Below, piece by piece: positions 6,091-43,039 of a stretch of 64,000 bases of DNA; position 1 is the first letter of the stretch; every line of letters begins with the position of its first letter. Under the pieces are notes generated by a model that saw only the letters and a program-made list of their open reading frames with translations, was not told the origin of the DNA and ran no database searches. This stretch comes from Pseudomonas sp. BN417 (GTDB taxonomy: Bacteria > Pseudomonadota > Gammaproteobacteria > Pseudomonadales > Pseudomonadaceae). The stretch covers positions 45,140 through 109,139 of the forward strand of contig NZ_SSOJ01000163.1 of assembly GCF_029871205.1 (NCBI RefSeq). The letters run 5' to 3'. The position numbers and the translations under genes were made by a program.

Positions 6091-6790
6091 CGGTCACCTC
6101 CCGGGACTCAGCTCGCCCATGCAGCTTACGTTGCCAGGCGCGTTGCAGCAGATCGATCACATCTCGATCCGTGATCTGTGAGAAATCCACATACCAGCGG
6201 CCAATCGCCGTGAACCATTCAGGCACGAAGGGGCAGACCACTTCGTCCACCTCCCTACGCAACTCGGTAATCGTGTCGTTTGGCGCCACGGGTACGGCAA
6301 TGACAATTCGCGCCGGCCCCTGGCTGTGCACCGCCCGCACGGCCGCCCGCATGGTGGCGCCAGTAGCCAGCCCGTCATCCACCAGAATCACCTGCTGGTT
6401 ACGCAGGTCCGGCAAGGGATGATCGCCGCGATAGACCCGCTCCCGACGTTGAAGCTCCTGTAGCTCCCGCTGCGCTACCGAATCCAGCGTGGCCTCATCG
6501 ACGCCATGCATCTTCACCACGTCACGATTGAGAACGCGTACACCGCCGCTGGCGATGGCTCCCATGGCCAGTTCGTCGTGGAAAGGAAGGCCCAGCTTGC
6601 GCACCGGCATCAGATCCAGGCGCAATTCCAGAGCTGCAGCGATCTCATAGGCAACAGGGACGCCACCTCGTGGCAGGGCGAGAACAATGGTGTCAGGTCG
6701 GCGCCTGTATGAGAGCAACATAGGCACAAGCGCCTGCCCAGCGGCCAGACGGTCGAGAATTGGGATATGGATCGAACCGGAGAATTTCAT
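6062..6790 (-). CDS. Phosphoribosyltransferase domain protein
   Basis: This is a 242-residue predicted type I phosphoribosyltransferase. The PRPP-binding loop reads VILVDDGLATGAT (about residues 135-147). An N-terminal segment, LALPRGGVPVAYEIA, is typical of the stress-associated PRTase family found next to alpha/beta hydrolases. The start at 6790 has only a weak GAGG 8 bases upstream. The gene ends inside the hydrolase gene (29-base overlap), giving a two-gene unit. Its acceptor base or metabolite is not known, so it should not be assumed to be a purine salvage enzyme. It lies in a cluster of universal stress proteins and ANR boxes, although no box was found immediately upstream of this pair. 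Confidence 0.88.
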   Translation of the reverse strand: MKFSGSIHIPILDRLAAGQALVPMLLSYRRRPDTIVLALPRGGVPVAYEIAAALELRLDLMPVRKLGLPFHDELAMGAIASGGVRVLNRDVVKMHGVDEATLDSVAQRELQELQRRERVYRGDHPLPDLRNQQVILVDDGLATGATMRAAVRAVHSQGPARIVIAVPVAPNDTITELRREVDEVVCPFVPEWFTAIGRWYVDFSQITDRDVIDLLQRAWQRKLHGRAESREVTDAPTSTSRH

Positions 6791-6824
6791 CTTGCTGCCC
6801 TCGAAACGCCCCTGGATGTTGGTT

Positions 6825-7031
6825 CTACATCGCTCTGCGCTTCTTCGTAGCTTTTCGGCCGGATTGGGTGTCCAGTGTCACAGAGCCCGACGTGTCAGGC
6901 GTACGTATCAGTTGGAAAAAGAACAGATTCAAGCGTTCGGCCAGAGCTTTGAACCAGCAGCCAATTGAAGAGCGCTTTATCTCATTTGGCTTGTCTTCAG
7001 GCGCGGAAGCATTTTTGTGTGAAGTTGCCAT
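6825..7031 (-). CDS. Small hypothetical protein, 68 residues
   Basis: No family was recognised. The start at 7031 has a strong GAGGAGG 8 bases upstream, the best reason to believe the gene is real. The protein begins MATSHKNASAPEDKP, has a short aromatic amphipathic stretch (GCWFKALAERLNLFFFQLI) and ends in a basic tail (GRKATKKRRAM). It could associate with membranes or nucleic acid. It lies 34 bases before the phosphoribosyltransferase gene on the same strand and could lead that operon. Confidence 0.5.
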   Translation of the reverse strand: MATSHKNASAPEDKPNEIKRSSIGCWFKALAERLNLFFFQLIRTPDTSGSVTLDTQSGRKATKKRRAM

Positions 7032-7155
7032 AACGCTGGCCTCCTCGTGGTTTCCATCTTCATGATCAGCTGGTGCGCACTCCGTTCGCGGGACGGGCCG
7101 CACTATGAACTTTCTTGTAATCATTACAGCCAAGGAAAGCCTCGGCATTCCCGAG

Positions 7156-8073
7156 TCAGGTTTCTGCGTCGCTGTCTTTGGGCTGGATGGCCAGGACACT
7201 CCCGGACAGCCGGTAGAGGACCGTTTCGGTCGTGCTGCCGATAAACTTGTCCAGGACCTTTCGGTGAACGCGCCCCATGACCACCACATCGGCTTGTTGT
7301 TCTTCTGCAAACTCGGTGATTCCCGTGACCGGATGGCCAACTATGAAGTGACGTCGCTCCTGTGGGACGCCATGTCGTTCGGCCAGGTCGACGAAGGATT
7401 GATGTAGCGCGCTGCGCAACTCCTCGACAACGTCCGCCCAGGCACCAACCGTTTCGCCGGAACTTGTCATGTAGGCCGGAATGTTGTTGTAGACATACAG
7501 CAGTTGGAACTCGGCGCTGCATTGCATGGCCAGGCCGGCGCCGGCCGTTATGATCTGATCGTTGAGGCCCGAGTACTGTGCCTCGGGATCGGTCGGGTCG
7601 ACCGCTGCCACGACCACCTGCGGCCTCGGATGGCGGGCGTCATTCACCAGATGAAGCGGCACAGGGCATTCGCGCAACAGGTGCCAGTCCAGAGGCGTGA
7701 CGAAGGCACGTTTGAGCACTGGCTCGCGCTGAATGTCCTTCACCAGCATATCCGGCTGGATCTCTTGCACGTGGCGAATGATTTCCTCATGCAGGCTCTC
7801 GGCCCAGACCACAGAGCAAGTGGCCTGGATGCCTTTATCTCTAAGGATTTCGACTTCCTTTTCCCAGCATCGACGCTGCTCGTTGAGCACGCTTTGGCGT
7901 ATCTGCTCCCTGAGCTCAATTGCCAATAATGGAAAGGTCATGAAGGGCTCGACCAGAACCGAAATATGGAGCGGAGCACCGCTAGCCATCGCGAGCGCTA
8001 CCGCTCTCTGAAACGCCGCGGACTGGCGTTGCTCCGCATGGCCGACCAGCAGAATTCTTCGCATTTGGCTCAT
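7156..8073 (-). CDS. Universal stress protein with two Usp domains
   Basis: This 305-residue cytoplasmic protein has two tandem UspA folds, residues about 1-150 and 155-300. The second domain ends with the nucleotide-binding pattern VVMGRVHRKVLDKFIGSTTETVLYR (G-2x-G-9x-G-S/T type, here slightly altered). The first ends in the degenerate form VKDIQREPVLKRAF, which is usual in tandem proteins. The start at 8073 was chosen for GGAGGTGGGTC just upstream; the frame is open 46 codons further but without a site. A near-perfect ANR box lies 112-125 bases before the start. The Pseudomonas homologues known from the literature are ANR-dependent and support survival during anaerobic energy stress; that role is inferred here. 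Confidence 0.92.
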   Translation of the reverse strand: MSQMRRILLVGHAEQRQSAAFQRAVALAMASGAPLHISVLVEPFMTFPLLAIELREQIRQSVLNEQRRCWEKEVEILRDKGIQATCSVVWAESLHEEIIRHVQEIQPDMLVKDIQREPVLKRAFVTPLDWHLLRECPVPLHLVNDARHPRPQVVVAAVDPTDPEAQYSGLNDQIITAGAGLAMQCSAEFQLLYVYNNIPAYMTSSGETVGAWADVVEELRSALHQSFVDLAERHGVPQERRHFIVGHPVTGITEFAEEQQADVVVMGRVHRKVLDKFIGSTTETVLYRLSGSVLAIQPKDSDAET

Positions 8074-8184
8074 GACCCACCTCCGCCTGACGGATACTTC
8101 ATCTAGTTTGGATTCCCTGCTTGGTCTACAGCCATCTCGAGACCCAGGGCTAAGTGCATCCTGCGACAGGGAAGAACGAGCGAA

Positions 8185-36938: not shown

Positions 36939-37556
36939 TCAGCGCTGGAAAACCCGGTCGAGCCGCTCCCTGGCCTCCCTGGCTTTGCGCGCCAGCACGG
37001 GACGCAGATCCTCGACCCGAATCCTCGAATCAGCCAGTTCACCACCCACGACGAAGCTGGTGGATCGGGCCAGCGCCGCTCCGCTCATCGCATCCTTGAC
37101 GTCGGCTTCGAAGAACAGGGAAAACCTGTCGCCTACCTGGGGCTCGGCAGTGTCGGCCTGCGGCGCTCGCTTCAAACCGGTCACGGATAGCTGGATGCGC
37201 AGTGCCTGGGGCTCAGGCTGGCCGACCATCTCATAGCCGTTCGAGAGCAGTTCCCGACGCAATTGCCGCTGGAAAAAAAACAGCAGCGTGTCGATTTCCC
37301 TGGCAGTGAAGTCCAGCCCCGAGCCATCCGAAAGCACTAGCCGCGGCGGTTCCAGAAGAACCCTCTTGCGATACTGCTCAGCCAGGGCGACACCCGAAGC
37401 CTGCCAATAGCGGACATCCCCTTGCTCAGCCCGGGGAGCGAGAGCCGCATGGTCGTCCGGGAACCCCGGATTTTCGGAGCCTGTCTGCGGTGCTGCGCTG
37501 CAGCCGGCCAACAGCCCCGCCAGGAGCGGAGCGATGATGCTCAGTTTCAGGATCAT
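36939..37556 (-). CDS. DUF3313-like outer-membrane lipoprotein (copy 1)
   Basis: This 205-residue lipoprotein has a signal peptide with lipobox LLAGC (Cys about residue 19). The rest has RKRVLLEPPRLVLSDGSGLDFTARE, FQRQLRRELLSNGYEMV and a C-terminal ARKAREARERLDRVFQR helix, the layout of DUF3313 proteins. It is related to the lipoprotein at 41807-42502, which shares F-R/Q-xQL-x-x-ELLS-x-GYE-x-V and the terminal RERLDR-FQ. The function is unknown; residue +2 after Cys is Ser, so outer-membrane sorting is expected. Confidence 0.8.
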   Translation of the reverse strand: MILKLSIIAPLLAGLLAGCSAAPQTGSENPGFPDDHAALAPRAEQGDVRYWQASGVALAEQYRKRVLLEPPRLVLSDGSGLDFTAREIDTLLFFFQRQLRRELLSNGYEMVGQPEPQALRIQLSVTGLKRAPQADTAEPQVGDRFSLFFEADVKDAMSGAALARSTSFVVGGELADSRIRVEDLRPVLARKAREARERLDRVFQR

Positions 37557-37624: not shown

Positions 37625-38092
37625 TCAGAAATAACGCGTGCCCTTGATGCTGCATTCGTCGATGCCCGCAGGTGGAGTCTCTTCGCTGGGGACTGTGAAG
37701 CCTTGGCTGTCCAGGCCAACGACGGACTCGACTTCCAGGCAGTCGATACCCTCCTCTACCGGCAGCGAAAAGAGCTCTACGGTTTCGGCAAGCTCGATCC
37801 GATGCACCTCAGTACCTAGCGAAACCCCATTGCTGAATACCTCCAGGCGCAGGTCGACGTAGCGAATGTCTTCGTATTCGGCGCGGCTCAGGACGCCGAC
37901 GAAGGTGGCTTCCTCTTCGATGTCCTGGACCCAGTGCGCGCGCAGATGGGCCTGGGCGACTGCTGCGCTGGAAGCGAAGCAGCACGTGATCGCCAGGATC
38001 AGCAGGCTTGCGACCTTCCTGTATTGACCGCCCACGGGCAGGAGCAGCCTGCCCAGGCTTCGTGGGGTAAGGTCGGCATGATCAATCATCAT
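37625..38092 (-). CDS. Hypothetical exported protein
   Basis: This 155-residue protein has an internal hydrophobic segment (RKVASLLILAITCCFASSAAVAQA, about 25-48) that looks like a signal peptide with a long N-region, so the true start may be downstream of 38092. No ribosome binding site is obvious for the first ATG. The mature part is acidic and beta-rich (YVDLRLEVFSNGVSLG, ECSIKGTRYF), with three cysteines in its second half. No family was recognised. It is 24 bases from the membrane protein gene at 38117-39208 and on the same strand. Confidence 0.6.
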   Translation of the reverse strand: MMIDHADLTPRSLGRLLLPVGGQYRKVASLLILAITCCFASSAAVAQAHLRAHWVQDIEEEATFVGVLSRAEYEDIRYVDLRLEVFSNGVSLGTEVHRIELAETVELFSLPVEEGIDCLEVESVVGLDSQGFTVPSEETPPAGIDECSIKGTRYF

Positions 38093-38116
38093 CGGACTGG
38101 ACCATTTCAGGGTGGA

Positions 38117-39208
38117 TCAACGGCTGGATACATGGCTGGCCAGGGGCCGCAGGGCCAGCCACGTGCGCCAGCGATCGAGATCGCCCCTGGCCATCTCGAA
38201 CAGGCTTCGCGTGTTCAACGCTTCCAGGGAACTGATGCACGCCTCGAGCGCAGTCGCTTCGACACGGCACGGGTTCTCCGCCGGTAGCCTGGTGCCCGTC
38301 AGGTAGGTCGCCAGGAAGTAGGAGGCCGCGAAGTCGGAGGGAAACTCATGTACGCCGCCGGCATGCAGCCAGGCACTCATCTTCTCGGCAAGGTGGCTCG
38401 CGTAATCCTTGGCGTCACGGCTGAAGTCGACCGACTCGCAGTCCTCCAGATAGATAAGACTGGCAGTGTCGTTGAGAACCCGCCCGCGAACTCTGCAGTA
38501 CAACCCGACATATTCACCCTCCATCAAGAGCCCGGTATATCGCCCCACGTCCCCGTGAAGTTCGGCCTGGACATTGGAAAAGTCATCGTTACCGGGAAGT
38601 TCAACGATAACGTCGTCGGCAAAATTAACGCGTACACCGACGATTTCACCGCTGACGATTATCTTCTTGCCCTTGTAGAGTTCTTCCGCTGCCAACTCGT
38701 CATCCTTATAGATGCTCGCCAGTCTGGAACTTGGCAGGCGCTCGACCGGGCTGACCATGGCCAATTCGACAAGGGCCGACTTACCTCCCGCGAGCCCTAC
38801 CAGGTAATCCTGCTCCATGACATTGCGAAAGAAACTCAAGGCCCCCTGGTCAACTTCCGGCCCGGAGGATTTATCGGCCTTTCCTTCCCCATCGCCGTCG
38901 AATAGCGACTGGAAATATCCGGAGACCTTTGCCAGATCCTTCGATAGTGCATCCGGAATCTCCGAACTTATCGAGACATAGGCGCCAATCAGAAATAACG
39001 GAAAGGCCAGCGTCGCGAAGACGATGCCATCGATCGACTTGCCAATAAGGCGATTAACGATATGCCAGAGGTCCGGGCAGAGCAGGACTGCCGCGACAAA
39101 AATGGCCGTTCCTCCTGCGAACGAACTGTTGATCGCTCCCACGGACAAGACTGCCAGCAGGCAGCAGGACACCCAGCAGAAAAAGCGGAAAACACTCTCG
39201 ACTCTCAA
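38117..39208 (-). CDS. Inner-membrane protein with an OB-fold (tRNA_anti-like) domain
   Basis: This 363-residue protein has three N-terminal hydrophobic segments (about 7-25, 29-46, 61-80). A soluble region follows, with an OB-fold-like stretch over about 175-260: YKGKKIIVSGEIVGVRVNF, VQAELHGD and GLYCRVRGRVLNDTASLIYLEDC. The pattern matches the tRNA_anti-like domain of membrane-associated proteins of unknown function. The C-terminal 100 residues are helical. It forms a probable unit with the exported protein downstream. No enzyme motif is visible. Confidence 0.72.
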   Translation of the reverse strand: MRVESVFRFFCWVSCCLLAVLSVGAINSSFAGGTAIFVAAVLLCPDLWHIVNRLIGKSIDGIVFATLAFPLFLIGAYVSISSEIPDALSKDLAKVSGYFQSLFDGDGEGKADKSSGPEVDQGALSFFRNVMEQDYLVGLAGGKSALVELAMVSPVERLPSSRLASIYKDDELAAEELYKGKKIIVSGEIVGVRVNFADDVIVELPGNDDFSNVQAELHGDVGRYTGLLMEGEYVGLYCRVRGRVLNDTASLIYLEDCESVDFSRDAKDYASHLAEKMSAWLHAGGVHEFPSDFAASYFLATYLTGTRLPAENPCRVEATALEACISSLEALNTRSLFEMARGDLDRWRTWLALRPLASHVSSR

Positions 39209-40144: not shown

Positions 40145-40618
40145 TTATCGGTAAAGGCATCGGACGTAGTCCAGTTCCTGGGTGTAGTAGCAGATGGTGT
40201 TTTCCACCTGGGTCGGCAAGAACTCAAGGTGCAGGGCCGCCCCGGTCGCCAGGCCGTACTGTCGGCCGAAGAACACGTCCGGAACTTCGCTCAGCCCGGA
40301 AAGCGGGTTGCTGCGGCTGCTCTGCGCCTGCTGGATCTCGAGCTCCAGGCTGCTCCTGCCGAAACTCACCGCCTTCGCAGACAGGGAGGCGTAATTCAGG
40401 TTCGCCTCCGACTTTTCAATCACGGCGAGGCTCAGGGTGTCGCCGATGATCAGCCGCTCTTCCGAGTGGATCATCTCGCCGCTGTTCAGGACGATGTTGT
40501 TCGTGCCGTGGTAGGAAACCCCCTTGGTATAGGCGGGCCGGTCGAAGACGACTCCGGCCAGGGCCAGCAACGCCATGCCGGAAAGAATGAACAGGTGCTT
40601 GAAACGGACGAAGTTCAT
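40145..40618 (-). CDS. Small membrane protein coupled to the ToxR-like regulator (ToxS-like partner)
   Basis: This 157-residue protein has one N-terminal hydrophobic helix (about 7-25), and the rest is predicted periplasmic. Two cysteines sit at the end (143 and 154). GGAGG precedes ATG 40618, and its start overlaps the stop of the upstream ToxR-like gene by ATGA, so translation is coupled. No sequence family was recognised, but the arrangement (winged-helix membrane regulator followed by a single-span periplasmic protein) matches ToxR-ToxS. The function as a partner is inference. Confidence 0.62.
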   Translation of the reverse strand: MNFVRFKHLFILSGMALLALAGVVFDRPAYTKGVSYHGTNNIVLNSGEMIHSEERLIIGDTLSLAVIEKSEANLNYASLSAKAVSFGRSSLELEIQQAQSSRSNPLSGLSEVPDVFFGRQYGLATGAALHLEFLPTQVENTICYYTQELDYVRCLYR

Positions 40619-41460
40619 TGGCTGTCCTCCAGGCACTTCCTGACCATTGCGAGTTTCAGGTTTTCCATCTTGTTGTCTTCGGAAAACATCAGGTTGCCGG
40701 TTCTTCCATCCGCCCTCACACAACTCAGGTCAAAGAGCCGGTTCGCCTTGTTGACCCAAACCTCTCCTGCCGGGTGAACATCCCGGGATTCCAGCACGGG
40801 TTTGAAGTCTGCCATCAGCCTTTCGGTTTCCGCTTCGTTCACGCCGACGAACCGGTAGGTCACCGGCCCCTTGACCACAGTTGCAATGGCCAGTTCGGAG
40901 CCCATCCCATCGAACAGCCCGCCCCTATAGCAGAAAACCGCAACAAGCAGGCCTGACATCAATACGTAAGCTGGCAACAGCAACCGTCCCCAGTCGAACT
41001 TCGTCCCGGCGCGGTGCAACACTTCCGTCTGCACCGGTTCGGGAGCATTTTCATTCGACAGGCTGATTTCTTCAGCCGCGGCCTCTTCGGTTTCCTCGGC
41101 GGAAACCGCGCCAGCTTCGTCGACTACATAACTGGCATTGAATCGATAGCCACGCCTTGGAACTGTCTGCAACAAGTCGTGGTCACGACCGTCGTTGATC
41201 AGGTTGCGCAAGGTGAAGATCGCCTGGTTCAAACTTCCCGCAGCGACTACACGATTATCCCAGGCGAACTCCATGATCTCGCTGCGACTCTTTATTTCTC
41301 CGGGCTCCAGCAACAGCAGTTGCAGGAGTCGAGATTCCGCATAGGCCAAAGTGACGGAGTTCACTTCGCCCCCCTGCGGCGCGAAACTCAATTGATTGGT
41401 TGCAGCGTCGAGAGTCGCCGTATCGCCATTCTTCAATAAAAACTGAAACTTGCTTCTCAT
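40615..41460 (-). CDS. ToxR/CadC-like membrane-anchored winged-helix regulator
   Basis: This 281-residue protein has an OmpR-type winged helix (about 30-110), including SLNQAIFTLRNLINDG and TVPRRGYRFNA. An acidic linker (about 118-150) and one transmembrane helix (159-178) follow. The periplasmic domain of about 100 residues has two cysteines, Cys247 and Cys276, like the disulfide pair of ToxR. It should bind DNA from the membrane and sense a periplasmic signal. ATG 41460 has GGAAAG upstream; the longer frame has no site. It overlaps the next gene by 4 bases. No CadC lysine-sensing features were recognised. Possible targets are the outer-membrane genes around it. Confidence 0.85.
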   Translation of the reverse strand: MRSKFQFLLKNGDTATLDAATNQLSFAPQGGEVNSVTLAYAESRLLQLLLLEPGEIKSRSEIMEFAWDNRVVAAGSLNQAIFTLRNLINDGRDHDLLQTVPRRGYRFNASYVVDEAGAVSAEETEEAAAEEISLSNENAPEPVQTEVLHRAGTKFDWGRLLLPAYVLMSGLLVAVFCYRGGLFDGMGSELAIATVVKGPVTYRFVGVNEAETERLMADFKPVLESRDVHPAGEVWVNKANRLFDLSCVRADGRTGNLMFSEDNKMENLKLAMVRKCLEDSQ

Positions 41461-41806
41461 GCTTTCCGGTGAATCTTGCACTGATAATGGATGACCGCCA
41501 GGCGGCTGCCTTATTTTCCCGCACAACTGATCTTCAAAGTCGATCAAAAACCGAAAATAACGATTTTTGATTCGGTGTATCGACCTTCTCCAGTGAAAAT
41601 TGCCCACACCACAATCATGAGTGTGAGGCCCGACCATTCCATCCGTTGTCGCTCCCCGCCAGCCTAACCAGCCACGGCGACCGATCCCCGAAGCTTAGCC
41701 AGCATCGCCCCACTATCCAGCGATCGCGGCAAGCGCAGTGTTCTTTCTGCAATGCCTCGAAAACACGGCTGACGAAGCCTTTGAACATCCGCTTCTGGAA
41801 CTTTCC

Positions 41807-42502
41807 ATGAACCTGAAATTACTTTCGATCATTCCATTCACACTCTCGCTGGTCGGCTGCTCGATGGCCCCGAAGATTGATTCCAGCCATTCAGAGCAAC
41901 TTGACAATCCGCGTGGGCATACCCAGGTCGAGAAGAACGAAGACATGATTTACTGGAAACGGAATGACGTCCTTTTTGCTGCAAGTTATGACAAGAAGAT
42001 CTTCCTGAGCCCGACTGGTTTGGTTTCGGCCGCGGATGGTACCAGCCAGGACCTCGACTCGGCGGAAGAACGGAAAATTCTCAACCGTTTCCGCTCTCAA
42101 CTGCAACACGAACTTTTATCCGCAGGTTACGAACTCGTCGACACCCCCACTCCGCGCTCCCTCGCACTCAAGGTGTCGATAGCCGATATCAAGCGCACGC
42201 CGCGGGATATGACCGTCATGGAATACGTCCCGATCGGATTCCTCGTCGGTCTGGGCATGCACACGGCCGGCTTGCGGGATGAAACGCTCTATCTGTTCTT
42301 CAAGACCGAAGTCACCGACGGCATGAACGGGGAAACCTTCGGCCAGGCCGTGAACCGGGTGCGCAGCGCGGATATAGACCCGTCCGACTCCCCCGTTGCC
42401 GAGGATCTCTACCCCGCAATCGACGCCAAGGCGCGACAACTTCGCGAGCGACTGGATCGCGAGTTCCAGGGCGAGAGCGCCCTGCATGCCACTTCCAATT
42501 AA
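41807..42502 (+). CDS. DUF3313-like lipoprotein (copy 2)
   Basis: This 231-residue lipoprotein has lipobox LSLVGC (Cys about 18). It is related to copy 1 at 36939: KKIFLSPTGLVSAADGTSQDLDSAEERK, FRSQLQHELLSAGYELV and the terminal RQLRERLDREFQG align by eye. It also has an inserted hydrophobic Gly-rich turn (VPIGFLVGLGMHTAG). The divergent orientation from the ToxR-like gene puts its promoter next to that regulator. The function is unknown. ATG 41807 was chosen at the start of the lipoprotein signal. Confidence 0.78.
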   Translation: MNLKLLSIIPFTLSLVGCSMAPKIDSSHSEQLDNPRGHTQVEKNEDMIYWKRNDVLFAASYDKKIFLSPTGLVSAADGTSQDLDSAEERKILNRFRSQLQHELLSAGYELVDTPTPRSLALKVSIADIKRTPRDMTVMEYVPIGFLVGLGMHTAGLRDETLYLFFKTEVTDGMNGETFGQAVNRVRSADIDPSDSPVAEDLYPAIDAKARQLRERLDREFQGESALHATSN

Positions 42503-42538: not shown

Positions 42539-43039
42539 ATGAAATTCGGAAAACACCTTGCTGCAACCCTGCTCACCCTTGCTTCCTTTGGCGCCGTTGC
42601 GGATGACAGAGGGCTTTATGTGGGTGCCGGTGTGACCCACGTGGAAACGGATGAACACAGCCTCGGCGACAGCGATAACAGCTACAAGGCCTACGCGGGT
42701 TACCGCTTCAATCCATACCTGGCAATCGAAGGCGCAGTGGTCGACCTGGGCGAGTTCGAAGGCGATGGGCAACGCTTCGACGGCAAATCCGTCCAGGCCG
42801 CGGTGCACCTCGGTGTCCCGATCGGCGACCGGATCCGCCTGTTCGCCAGTGGCGGCGTCCATGCCTGGGATGCCGAAGGAGATTCCGCCGGGGATGACAA
42901 TGACATGGACCTCACCTACGGTGCCGGCGTCGAACTCGACCTGTTCAGGAACATCGGCGTACGTGTGGAGCAGGAGGTCCTGAAGGTGGGTGATATCGAC
43001 CTGGACCAGACCAGCGCCTCCGTCTACTTCATTTTCTGA
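42539..43039 (+). CDS. Small outer-membrane beta-barrel protein (OmpA/OmpW-like)
   Basis: This 166-residue exported protein has a signal peptide (MKFGKHLAATLLTLASFGAVA, cut about 21). A pattern of alternating strands follows: GLYVGAGVTHVETD, SYKAYAGYRFNPYLAIEGA, VQAAVHLGVPIGDRIRLFASGG, LTYGAGVELDLFRNIGVRVEQE. It ends with a C-terminal aromatic residue (VYFIF), the signal for BAM assembly. It is the size of an 8-stranded barrel without a periplasmic OmpA domain. It follows the DUF3313 lipoprotein by 36 bases on the same strand, so they may be co-transcribed. Confidence 0.85.
   Translation: MKFGKHLAATLLTLASFGAVADDRGLYVGAGVTHVETDEHSLGDSDNSYKAYAGYRFNPYLAIEGAVVDLGEFEGDGQRFDGKSVQAAVHLGVPIGDRIRLFASGGVHAWDAEGDSAGDDNDMDLTYGAGVELDLFRNIGVRVEQEVLKVGDIDLDQTSASVYFIF

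What the first reader, a model, noticed from the sequence alone, without database searches (positions are those of the whole stretch)
40145..41460. ToxR/ToxS-like overlapping gene pair in a Pseudomonas-like genome
A winged-helix membrane regulator with two periplasmic cysteines overlaps by ATGA with a single-span periplasmic protein that also ends in two cysteines. ToxRS pairs are best known in Vibrio. Surrounding genes encode lipoproteins, a transglycosylase and a barrel, so it may control envelope composition by a redox or bile-like signal.
Basis: partly seen in the sequence, partly recalled or inferred. Interest (0 to 1): 0.62.

Follow-up and report, generated by a model that had tools for sequence, protein, structure and literature searches.

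The report
ToxRS-like pair with its own operator
A Pseudomonas carries a two-protein membrane switch built like the cholera bile sensor ToxR/ToxS, and it travels with a lipoprotein gene, an outer-membrane barrel gene and one almost unchanging 19-base DNA sequence in front of them, so its target can be guessed and tested directly.

Summary
Gene A (40615-41460, minus) encodes a winged helix, one membrane span and a periplasmic domain with two cysteines. It overlaps by ATGA with gene B (40145-40618, minus), a single-span protein with two C-terminal cysteines. Pair, overlap and cysteines are conserved in 10 of 17 other genomes held for the genus; diverged pairs occur elsewhere in the family. B has no named family, but the first six PDB rows for its low-confidence model are VtrC or ToxS. 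I place the pair in the published VtrA/VtrC-ToxR/ToxS 'co-component' superfamily, as a Pseudomonas branch, not as Vibrio ToxRS; its cysteine positions differ from ToxR's and YqeJ's. New here: linkage to a DUF3313 lipoprotein gene and an OmpA-like barrel gene, and a 19-bp sequence before them. It occurs once in each of the 11 genus genomes with this pair, in none of the 7 without it (3 of those have another type of pair), and in four deeply diverged loci of different layout. I infer that A binds this site and controls the lipoprotein-barrel operon, with B as periplasmic sensor. Binding, ligand and sign of regulation are untested.

The parts
40615..41460 (-). Gene A: ToxR-like membrane-tethered transcription factor, 281 aa
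   Evidence: Trans_reg_C E 7e-13; best PDB sequence matches ToxR, then CadC and TcpP
41140..41358 (-). Winged-helix DNA-binding domain of A (residues 35-107)
   Evidence: Pfam match range; first Foldseek rows are ToxR bound to promoter DNA
40927..40983 (-). Transmembrane span of A (residues 160-178)
   Evidence: Hydropathy maximum and model helix 157-179
40720..40722 (-). A Cys247
   Evidence: Invariant in 11 of 11 genus sequences
40633..40635 (-). A Cys276
   Evidence: Invariant in 11 of 11 genus sequences
40615..40618 (-). ATGA overlap of A stop and B start
   Evidence: Same -4 overlap in 10 of 10 other genus loci of this type
40145..40618 (-). Gene B: single-span periplasmic partner, 157 aa, predicted lipocalin-like
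   Evidence: No Pfam/NCBIfam match; low-confidence model whose first structural rows are VtrC and ToxS
40541..40597 (-). N-terminal transmembrane span of B (residues 8-26)
   Evidence: Hydropathy maximum
40157..40192 (-). B Cys143 to Cys154, C-x10-C in the last predicted hairpin
   Evidence: C-x10-C in 37 of 38 B sequences examined; predicted strands 141-146 and 151-156
41555..41573 (+). 19-bp conserved site AAATAACGATTTTTGATTC, proposed operator
   Evidence: Only match in the window within 3 mismatches, none in 100 shuffles; one per genome in 11 of 11 genus genomes with this pair, none in the 7 without it at up to 2 mismatches
41807..42502 (+). DUF3313 lipoprotein gene, proposed target
   Evidence: PF11769 E 5e-26; start 233 bp after the site; adjacent in 10 of 10 other genus loci
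42539..43039 (+). OmpA-like small outer-membrane barrel gene, proposed target
   Evidence: PF13505 E 2e-16; in 11 of 11 genus genomes with this pair and 0 of 7 without it

Best explanation
A and B form a co-component signalling system of the VtrA/VtrC-ToxR/ToxS kind. They are encoded in overlapping frames, and their periplasmic domains are expected to form a heterodimer in which B's lipocalin-like barrel is the sensor and stabiliser (inferred from the superfamily). A reaches DNA with its winged helix while tethered to the inner membrane. Its target is most likely the neighbouring DUF3313 lipoprotein plus OmpA-like barrel operon, through the single 19-bp site in front of it (shown: conservation, orientation and co-occurrence; inferred: binding by A). 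Activation from a weak promoter is my guess rather than repression, because a second short element (CAGAGTG) follows the site at fixed distance in most loci. The signal is unknown: an amphipathic or lipid-like molecule, or loss of disulfides in A or B, are the candidates.
For: Domain order, overlap and cysteines. An A homologue lies directly upstream of B in 34 of the 35 loci that I extracted by B matches outside the window; the other, L082, is a fused remnant. First six Foldseek rows for B's model, in a library of 350,542 chains, are from VtrA/VtrC entries (5, the VtrC chains by my reading) and ToxS (1), probability 0.97 or more, then 0.13. VIA Z 8.0, 7.1, 6.4 for VtrC. A's model finds ToxR wHTH first and VtrA-complex chains at ranks 11, 12 and 16; Foldseek does not print the range, so that these match the periplasmic part is inferred. 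Lipoprotein and barrel beside the pair in 10 of 10 other genus loci and in L054-L057. Barrel in 11 of 11 genus genomes with this pair and 0 of 7 without, Fisher p 3e-5 ignoring relatedness. All 14 genomes with the site at 0-1 mismatch among 398 carry pair, lipoprotein and barrel at the site. In L054-L057 A and B read with the lipoprotein gene and the site lies in the B-lipoprotein gap, in unchanged orientation to the lipoprotein, though B there is only 23-28% identical to the window's.
Against: B's model has mean pLDDT 48 and no Foldseek row under E 0.014; the VIA Z for ToxS (5.4) is tied with other lipocalin-like proteins (5.3, 5.1), and the tool warns that Z under 8 may mean only a common arrangement. 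No DNA-binding, complex or expression data exist. In the five type II loci L049-L053 the pair and a barrel are present but not the site. The barrel family also occurs without this pair in 17 genomes of another genus of the family. CAGAGTG is missing in the window and its near-identical relative (2 of 15 loci).
Confidence: 0.7

Rival explanations
1. The pair is a genuine co-component system, but the 19-bp site is not its operator: it is a promoter or RNA element, or a site for another regulator, that belongs to the lipoprotein-barrel operon, and A/B control something else.
For: No binding data; pairs next to a barrel but without the site exist in L049-L053. Part of the site resembles an A-rich RNA-binding motif (recalled, not tested).
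Against: The site is absent from the 7 genus genomes without this pair and occurs once per genome that has it; in the family survey every 0-1 mismatch match is at a pair locus. A general regulator would be expected to have more sites.
Confidence: 0.2
2. A is a one-component CadC-like regulator; B is an unrelated membrane protein that only shares the operon.
For: NCBIfam's best match for A is CadC (E 4e-11, 43 bits against a cut-off of 400). In G007 an A-like fragment has no recognisable B (L166).
Against: ToxR beats CadC in sequence and the two are tied in structure; B stays beside A in 34 of 35 loci found by B; B's first structural rows are the partners VtrC and ToxS.
Confidence: 0.06
3. The pair senses the redox state of the periplasm: reduction of the A and B disulfides switches activity or triggers A's degradation, and no lipid is bound.
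For: All four cysteines are invariant in the genus; titles in a reference list tie ToxR and TcpP stability to their cysteines.
Against: The same cysteines may be purely structural; the lipocalin-like hints point to a ligand.
Confidence: 0.2

Closest known systems
VtrA/VtrC of Vibrio parahaemolyticus (bile receptor, PDB 5KEV/5KEW)
   Same: wHTH-TM-periplasmic factor plus overlapping single-span partner; B's best structural rows are VtrC, A's list includes VtrA-complex chains
   Different: VtrA lacks the conserved disulfide (PMC9214523, passage) whereas A keeps two cysteines; only 8-10% identity over the aligned part of B
ToxR/ToxS of Vibrio cholerae
   Same: A's DNA-binding domain is most similar to ToxR; predicted order hairpin-helix-three strands-helix equals the published ToxRp description; ToxR too acts on an outer-membrane protein gene, ompU (passages)
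   Different: ToxR/ToxS is listed as an exception without gene overlap; ToxR's disulfide joins the first helix to the C terminus, A's first cysteine lies in predicted strand 242-249; B has no family match
MarT/FidL, GrvA/FidL, YqeI/YqeJ
   Same: Same two-gene cassette; the paper describes a Pseudomonas cluster that diverges from the FidL cluster
   Different: FidL-type disulfide joins first and last strands and YqeJ has one N-terminal and one C-terminal cysteine; B has both in the last hairpin
PsaE/PsaF of Yersinia and TcpP/TcpH of V. cholerae
   Same: psaE and psaF overlap by 4 bp and PsaF raises PsaE levels (PMC6657601, passages)
   Different: PsaE/PsaF control fimbriae; here the linked genes are a lipoprotein and a barrel
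CadC
   Same: wHTH-TM-periplasmic layout and related DNA-binding domain
   Different: One-component; set apart from co-components on gene neighbourhood (PMC9214523 section 6)

Membership tests
VtrAC/ToxRS co-component superfamily | Factor with N-terminal wHTH, single TM, C-terminal periplasmic domain | tested here: met
VtrAC/ToxRS co-component superfamily | Downstream same-strand partner with one TM and periplasmic domain, often overlapping | tested here: met
   ATGA overlap in 11 of 11 genus loci of this type, window included; adjacency in 34 of 35 loci found by B
VtrAC/ToxRS co-component superfamily | Partner has an eight-stranded lipocalin-like fold | tested here: inconclusive
   First six rows VtrC/ToxS, VIA Z up to 8.0, but model pLDDT is 48 and only six strands were assigned
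VtrAC/ToxRS co-component superfamily | Obligate periplasmic heterodimer | not testable with these tools
   Only single-chain prediction offered; needs complex prediction or co-purification
VtrAC/ToxRS co-component superfamily | Conserved disulfide with a Cys near the factor's C terminus (all but VtrA) | tested here: met
   Two cysteines near the C terminus in 37 of 39 A rows; the exceptions are half of a split frame (L085) and a remnant (L082). The bond itself was not tested
ToxR/ToxS proper | Partner matches a ToxS family model | tested here: inconclusive
   B matches no Pfam model at E 10 and no NCBIfam model at E 1; that these libraries hold a ToxS model is recalled, not checked
ToxR/ToxS proper | Disulfide from first periplasmic helix to C terminus (Cys236-Cys293) | tested here: not met
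   A Cys247 lies in predicted strand 242-249, the helix is 209-223
FidL/YqeJ branch | Cysteines in first and last strands of the partner barrel | tested here: not met
   B's only cysteines are 143 and 154, both in the last two predicted strands
CadC | No periplasmic partner gene | tested here: not met
   B conserved beside A

The most novel reading that the evidence does not exclude
Pseudomonads own a large, hardly described set of co-component systems, each hard-wired to one neighbouring surface structure. This type guards an outer-membrane barrel and lipoprotein through one private operator conserved across lineages whose sensors have diverged to about 25% identity; others sit by motA/motB or by chaperone-usher fimbriae. 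The sensor would read an envelope lipid or barrel-assembly state and close a local feedback loop, far from any host bile.
Probability: 0.35. Interest if true: 0.66.

Novelty: new variant of a known kind. Interest (0 to 1): 0.52.

Why it matters
The best-studied co-component systems are sensors of gut pathogens, two of them for bile. A branch in Pseudomonas that is tied to an outer-membrane operon by a single near-invariant DNA site offers a laboratory system in which sensor, factor, candidate operator and target are all in hand. It would allow a test of what these lipocalin-like sensors detect outside the gut and whether envelope control is an older role. It also suggests a context for a DUF3313 lipoprotein of unknown function.

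Tried and rejected
ToxS/FidL by sequence: B has no Pfam match at E 10. The FidL family search rang in 0 of 369 class genomes and in none of the 14 control genomes, so it shows nothing. PDB by sequence for B: best E 0.55, nothing meaningful. Plasmids: one distant pair, on a Pseudomonas frederiksbergensis plasmid.

The genome-contig scan with B found 5 loci, all Pseudomonas; it relies on two short conserved peptides, so distant members are missed.

Site in the other types: no match within 4 mismatches in L022, L058, L081-L094 or four of the five type II loci; L050 has one 4-mismatch match, taken as noise. The type II loci share no 13-mer in the 9.5 kb compared. Two-mismatch matches away from pairs: 15 places in 13 of 398 genomes, with no relative of 13 window genes in the 2.4-3.0 kb held around each. 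The reversed pattern gave 7 matches in 6 genomes, so these 15 are about twice that control; three of them share one variant (G020, G424, G451) and were not explained.

A sigma-70 reading of the site (TTGATT inside it) was considered and dropped: CAGAGTG lies 21 bp downstream in 12 of 15 loci and 22 in one, too far for a -10 of that -35.

VIA rows for A cover residues 1-111 only, with the NsrR domain (Z 12.7) tied with ToxR (12.4) and CadC (12.1). So A's periplasmic fold rests on Foldseek ranks 11, 12 and 16 (range not printed) and on strand order.

I fetched them: G002, G006, G001 and G017 have a B-like frame over A's end (E 0.65 in two pieces with C-x10-C; 5e-7; 0.002; 0.002), and G007 has an A-like fragment without one. 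So 3 of the 7 genomes without this pair carry another type.

Not done: complex prediction, coevolution, trees. Rows not followed: G719 and G023 (weak), G424 and G485.

Full report
Check. A is 41460-40615 and B 40618-40145 on the minus strand, sharing ATGA. A has a Trans_reg_C winged helix, one span and two periplasmic cysteines; B has one N-terminal span and cysteines 143 and 154. A further cysteine of A inside the span is seen only in the window and L012 among the 11 genus sequences.

Conservation. Searching B in 57 related genomes found it in 11, all in the window's genus; of the 18 held genomes of that genus 11 have it, the window's included. The 10 others have A directly upstream with the same 4-base overlap. 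The four cysteines are invariant in all 11. Named relatives are Pseudomonas sp. BN102 (97% in B), P. resinovorans DSM 21078, P. taiwanensis xwS3, sp. BN411 and sp. JM0905a. In 398 genomes of the family a first profile matched in 23 (limit 0.1) and a wider one in 35 (limit 0.01). I extracted 10 and then 14 of these loci, plus a plasmid locus. With the 10 genus loci that makes 35; an A homologue lies next to B in 34, the other (L082) being a fused remnant, and in L085 A's frame is split. B ends in C-x10-C in 37 of 38 sequences, the exception being L082. Searching with A instead gave five more places in the genus. Four have a B-like frame over A's end, two of them weak (E 0.002) and one recognised mainly by its C-x10-C; one, in G007, is an A-like fragment without B.

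What it is. A's closest solved relatives by sequence are ToxR (E 1e-9), then CadC and TcpP. Its model (pLDDT 69; 76-86 per block in the periplasmic part) has the order strand-strand-helix-three strands-helix, with the first helix in two pieces, the order that the ToxRS crystal paper gives for ToxRp (PMC10624426, passages). Foldseek ranks ToxR wHTH first and lists VtrA-complex chains at 11, 12 and 16. B's model is poor (pLDDT 48, six sequences). Yet the first six rows of a 350,542-chain library are VtrC-complex chains five times and ToxS once, with probability 0.97 or more; row seven has 0.13. VIA-align gives VtrC Z 8.0, 7.1 and 6.4 and ToxS 5.4, the last tied with unrelated lipocalin-like rows. 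I read B as a true lipocalin-like relative, but the model alone cannot prove it. The predicted strands 141-146 and 151-156 place Cys143 and Cys154 opposite each other in the last hairpin. FidL-type partners instead join first and last strands (PMC9214523 section 7), in line with YqeJ's cysteines. The class is in print as 'co-component systems' (PMC9214523; abstract, sections 6-8 and passages seen). That paper already mentions a Pseudomonas cluster and an overlapping pair in P. fluorescens C1, and says that P. aeruginosa PAO1 lacks one. So the kind is known.

The target. A search of 13 window genes over the loci showed the DUF3313 lipoprotein (41807-42502) and the OmpA-like barrel (42539-43039) next to the pair in all 10 other genus loci. 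In L054-L057, from two other genera, the order is A-B-lipoprotein-barrel on one strand. Within the genus the barrel is found in 11 of 11 genomes with this pair and 0 of 7 without. Lipoprotein matches at 43% identity or more are likewise confined to the 11, while remote DUF3313 proteins occur in three of the others. Against a strict tie, 17 genomes of another genus, of 283 family genomes, carry a barrel at 52-60% identity without this type of pair; one of them, G541, has another type. Of these 17 I held 15 loci with 1.5 kb on each side, and none shows the lipoprotein, the pair or the site.

The site. Aligning the divergent A-lipoprotein gap shows one block, AAATAACGATTTTTGATTC (window 41555-41573), with 18 of 19 columns invariant in 10 sequences (L012 dropped as near-identical). 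The longest invariant run outside it is 3, and 0 of 20,000 column shuffles reach the 11-column run inside it; some rows of that alignment run into the lipoprotein gene. In the genus the site occurs once in each of the 11 genomes with this pair (10 exact, one with a mismatch) and in none of the 7 others at up to 2 mismatches, although 3 of those 7 have another type of pair. Among 398 family genomes all 14 with 0-1 mismatch have it at this type of locus: the 11, plus G683, G525 and G716; G687 has 2 mismatches at its own. In these four loci A and B point the same way as the lipoprotein gene and the site sits between B and it, in the same orientation to the lipoprotein as in the window. The site therefore follows the lipoprotein-barrel operon and not A's promoter, while occurring only where this pair is present. 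A second element, CAGAGTG with at most one change, follows at 21 bp in 12 of 15 loci and at 22 in one, but not in the window or L012.

How it most likely works. Shown: anatomy, linkage, co-occurrence, site. Inferred: A-B heterodimer, sensing by B, binding of A to the site, activation of the operon. The stretch that should hold the recognition helix (by recall of the fold) reads SLNQAIFTLRNLI in the window and SLNQSIFMLRNIL in L054, in line with a shared site; but type II loci, which lack the site, read much the same. The signal is open.

Rivals. The strongest is that the site belongs to another factor or is a promoter or RNA element. One site per genome and its absence from genomes without this pair speak against a general factor. 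A CadC-like one-component reading fails on B's conservation and structural matches.

Novelty. Searches for 'co-component' with VtrA and Pseudomonas, DUF3313, ToxS/lipocalin/Pseudomonas and resinovorans/ToxR listed no paper on this locus as far as their titles and abstract starts show; PMC9214523 came nearest. Passages of a survey of transmembrane regulators (PMC10269533) name WmpR of 'Pseudomonas tunicata' but no such pair. The library lacks most subscription journals. I rate this a new variant of a known kind. The protein called ToxR in P. aeruginosa (PMC9388670, abstract start in listing) should not be confused with this one; that it is unrelated is recalled.

Noticed in passing
L086 4952-6750 beside the pair at 6772-8117; similar in L087, L089, L092, L093: A further type of A/B pair lies beside motA/motB (Pfam in L086). 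In the others the same start sequences and hook-, cap- and flagellin-like genes are seen by eye: a co-component system in a flagellar cluster.
   Followed up: partly
L081 6762-15591: Two tandem A/B pairs flank an EAL-domain gene and lie beside fimbrial adhesin, usher and chaperone genes.
   Followed up: partly
L022 2241-5175 (P. frederiksbergensis plasmid NZ_CP017887.1): An A/B pair on a mobilizable plasmid directly follows an EAL-domain gene and lies near a ZirU-family gene. L050 also has an EAL gene near its pair.
   Followed up: no
window 37625-39208: A protein with a tRNA_anti-like domain (38117-39208) and a small protein (37625-38092) stay beside the pair in all 10 other genus loci; roles unknown.
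   Followed up: no
L058 6466-9892 and L082 6411-6899: Genome G652 carries two tandem pairs and elsewhere a fused remnant whose frame joins part of an A to the end of a B that has lost one cysteine.
   Followed up: no
window 36939-37556; L013-L020: A second DUF3313 lipoprotein lies 3 kb from the pair in the window and L012. Eight of the other nine genus loci instead have a remote DUF3313 relative (26-29%) several kb away on the other side.
   Followed up: no
L166 2686-3354 (G007): An A-like fragment that keeps the DNA-binding half but has no recognisable periplasmic domain or B partner, possibly a decayed pair.
   Followed up: partly
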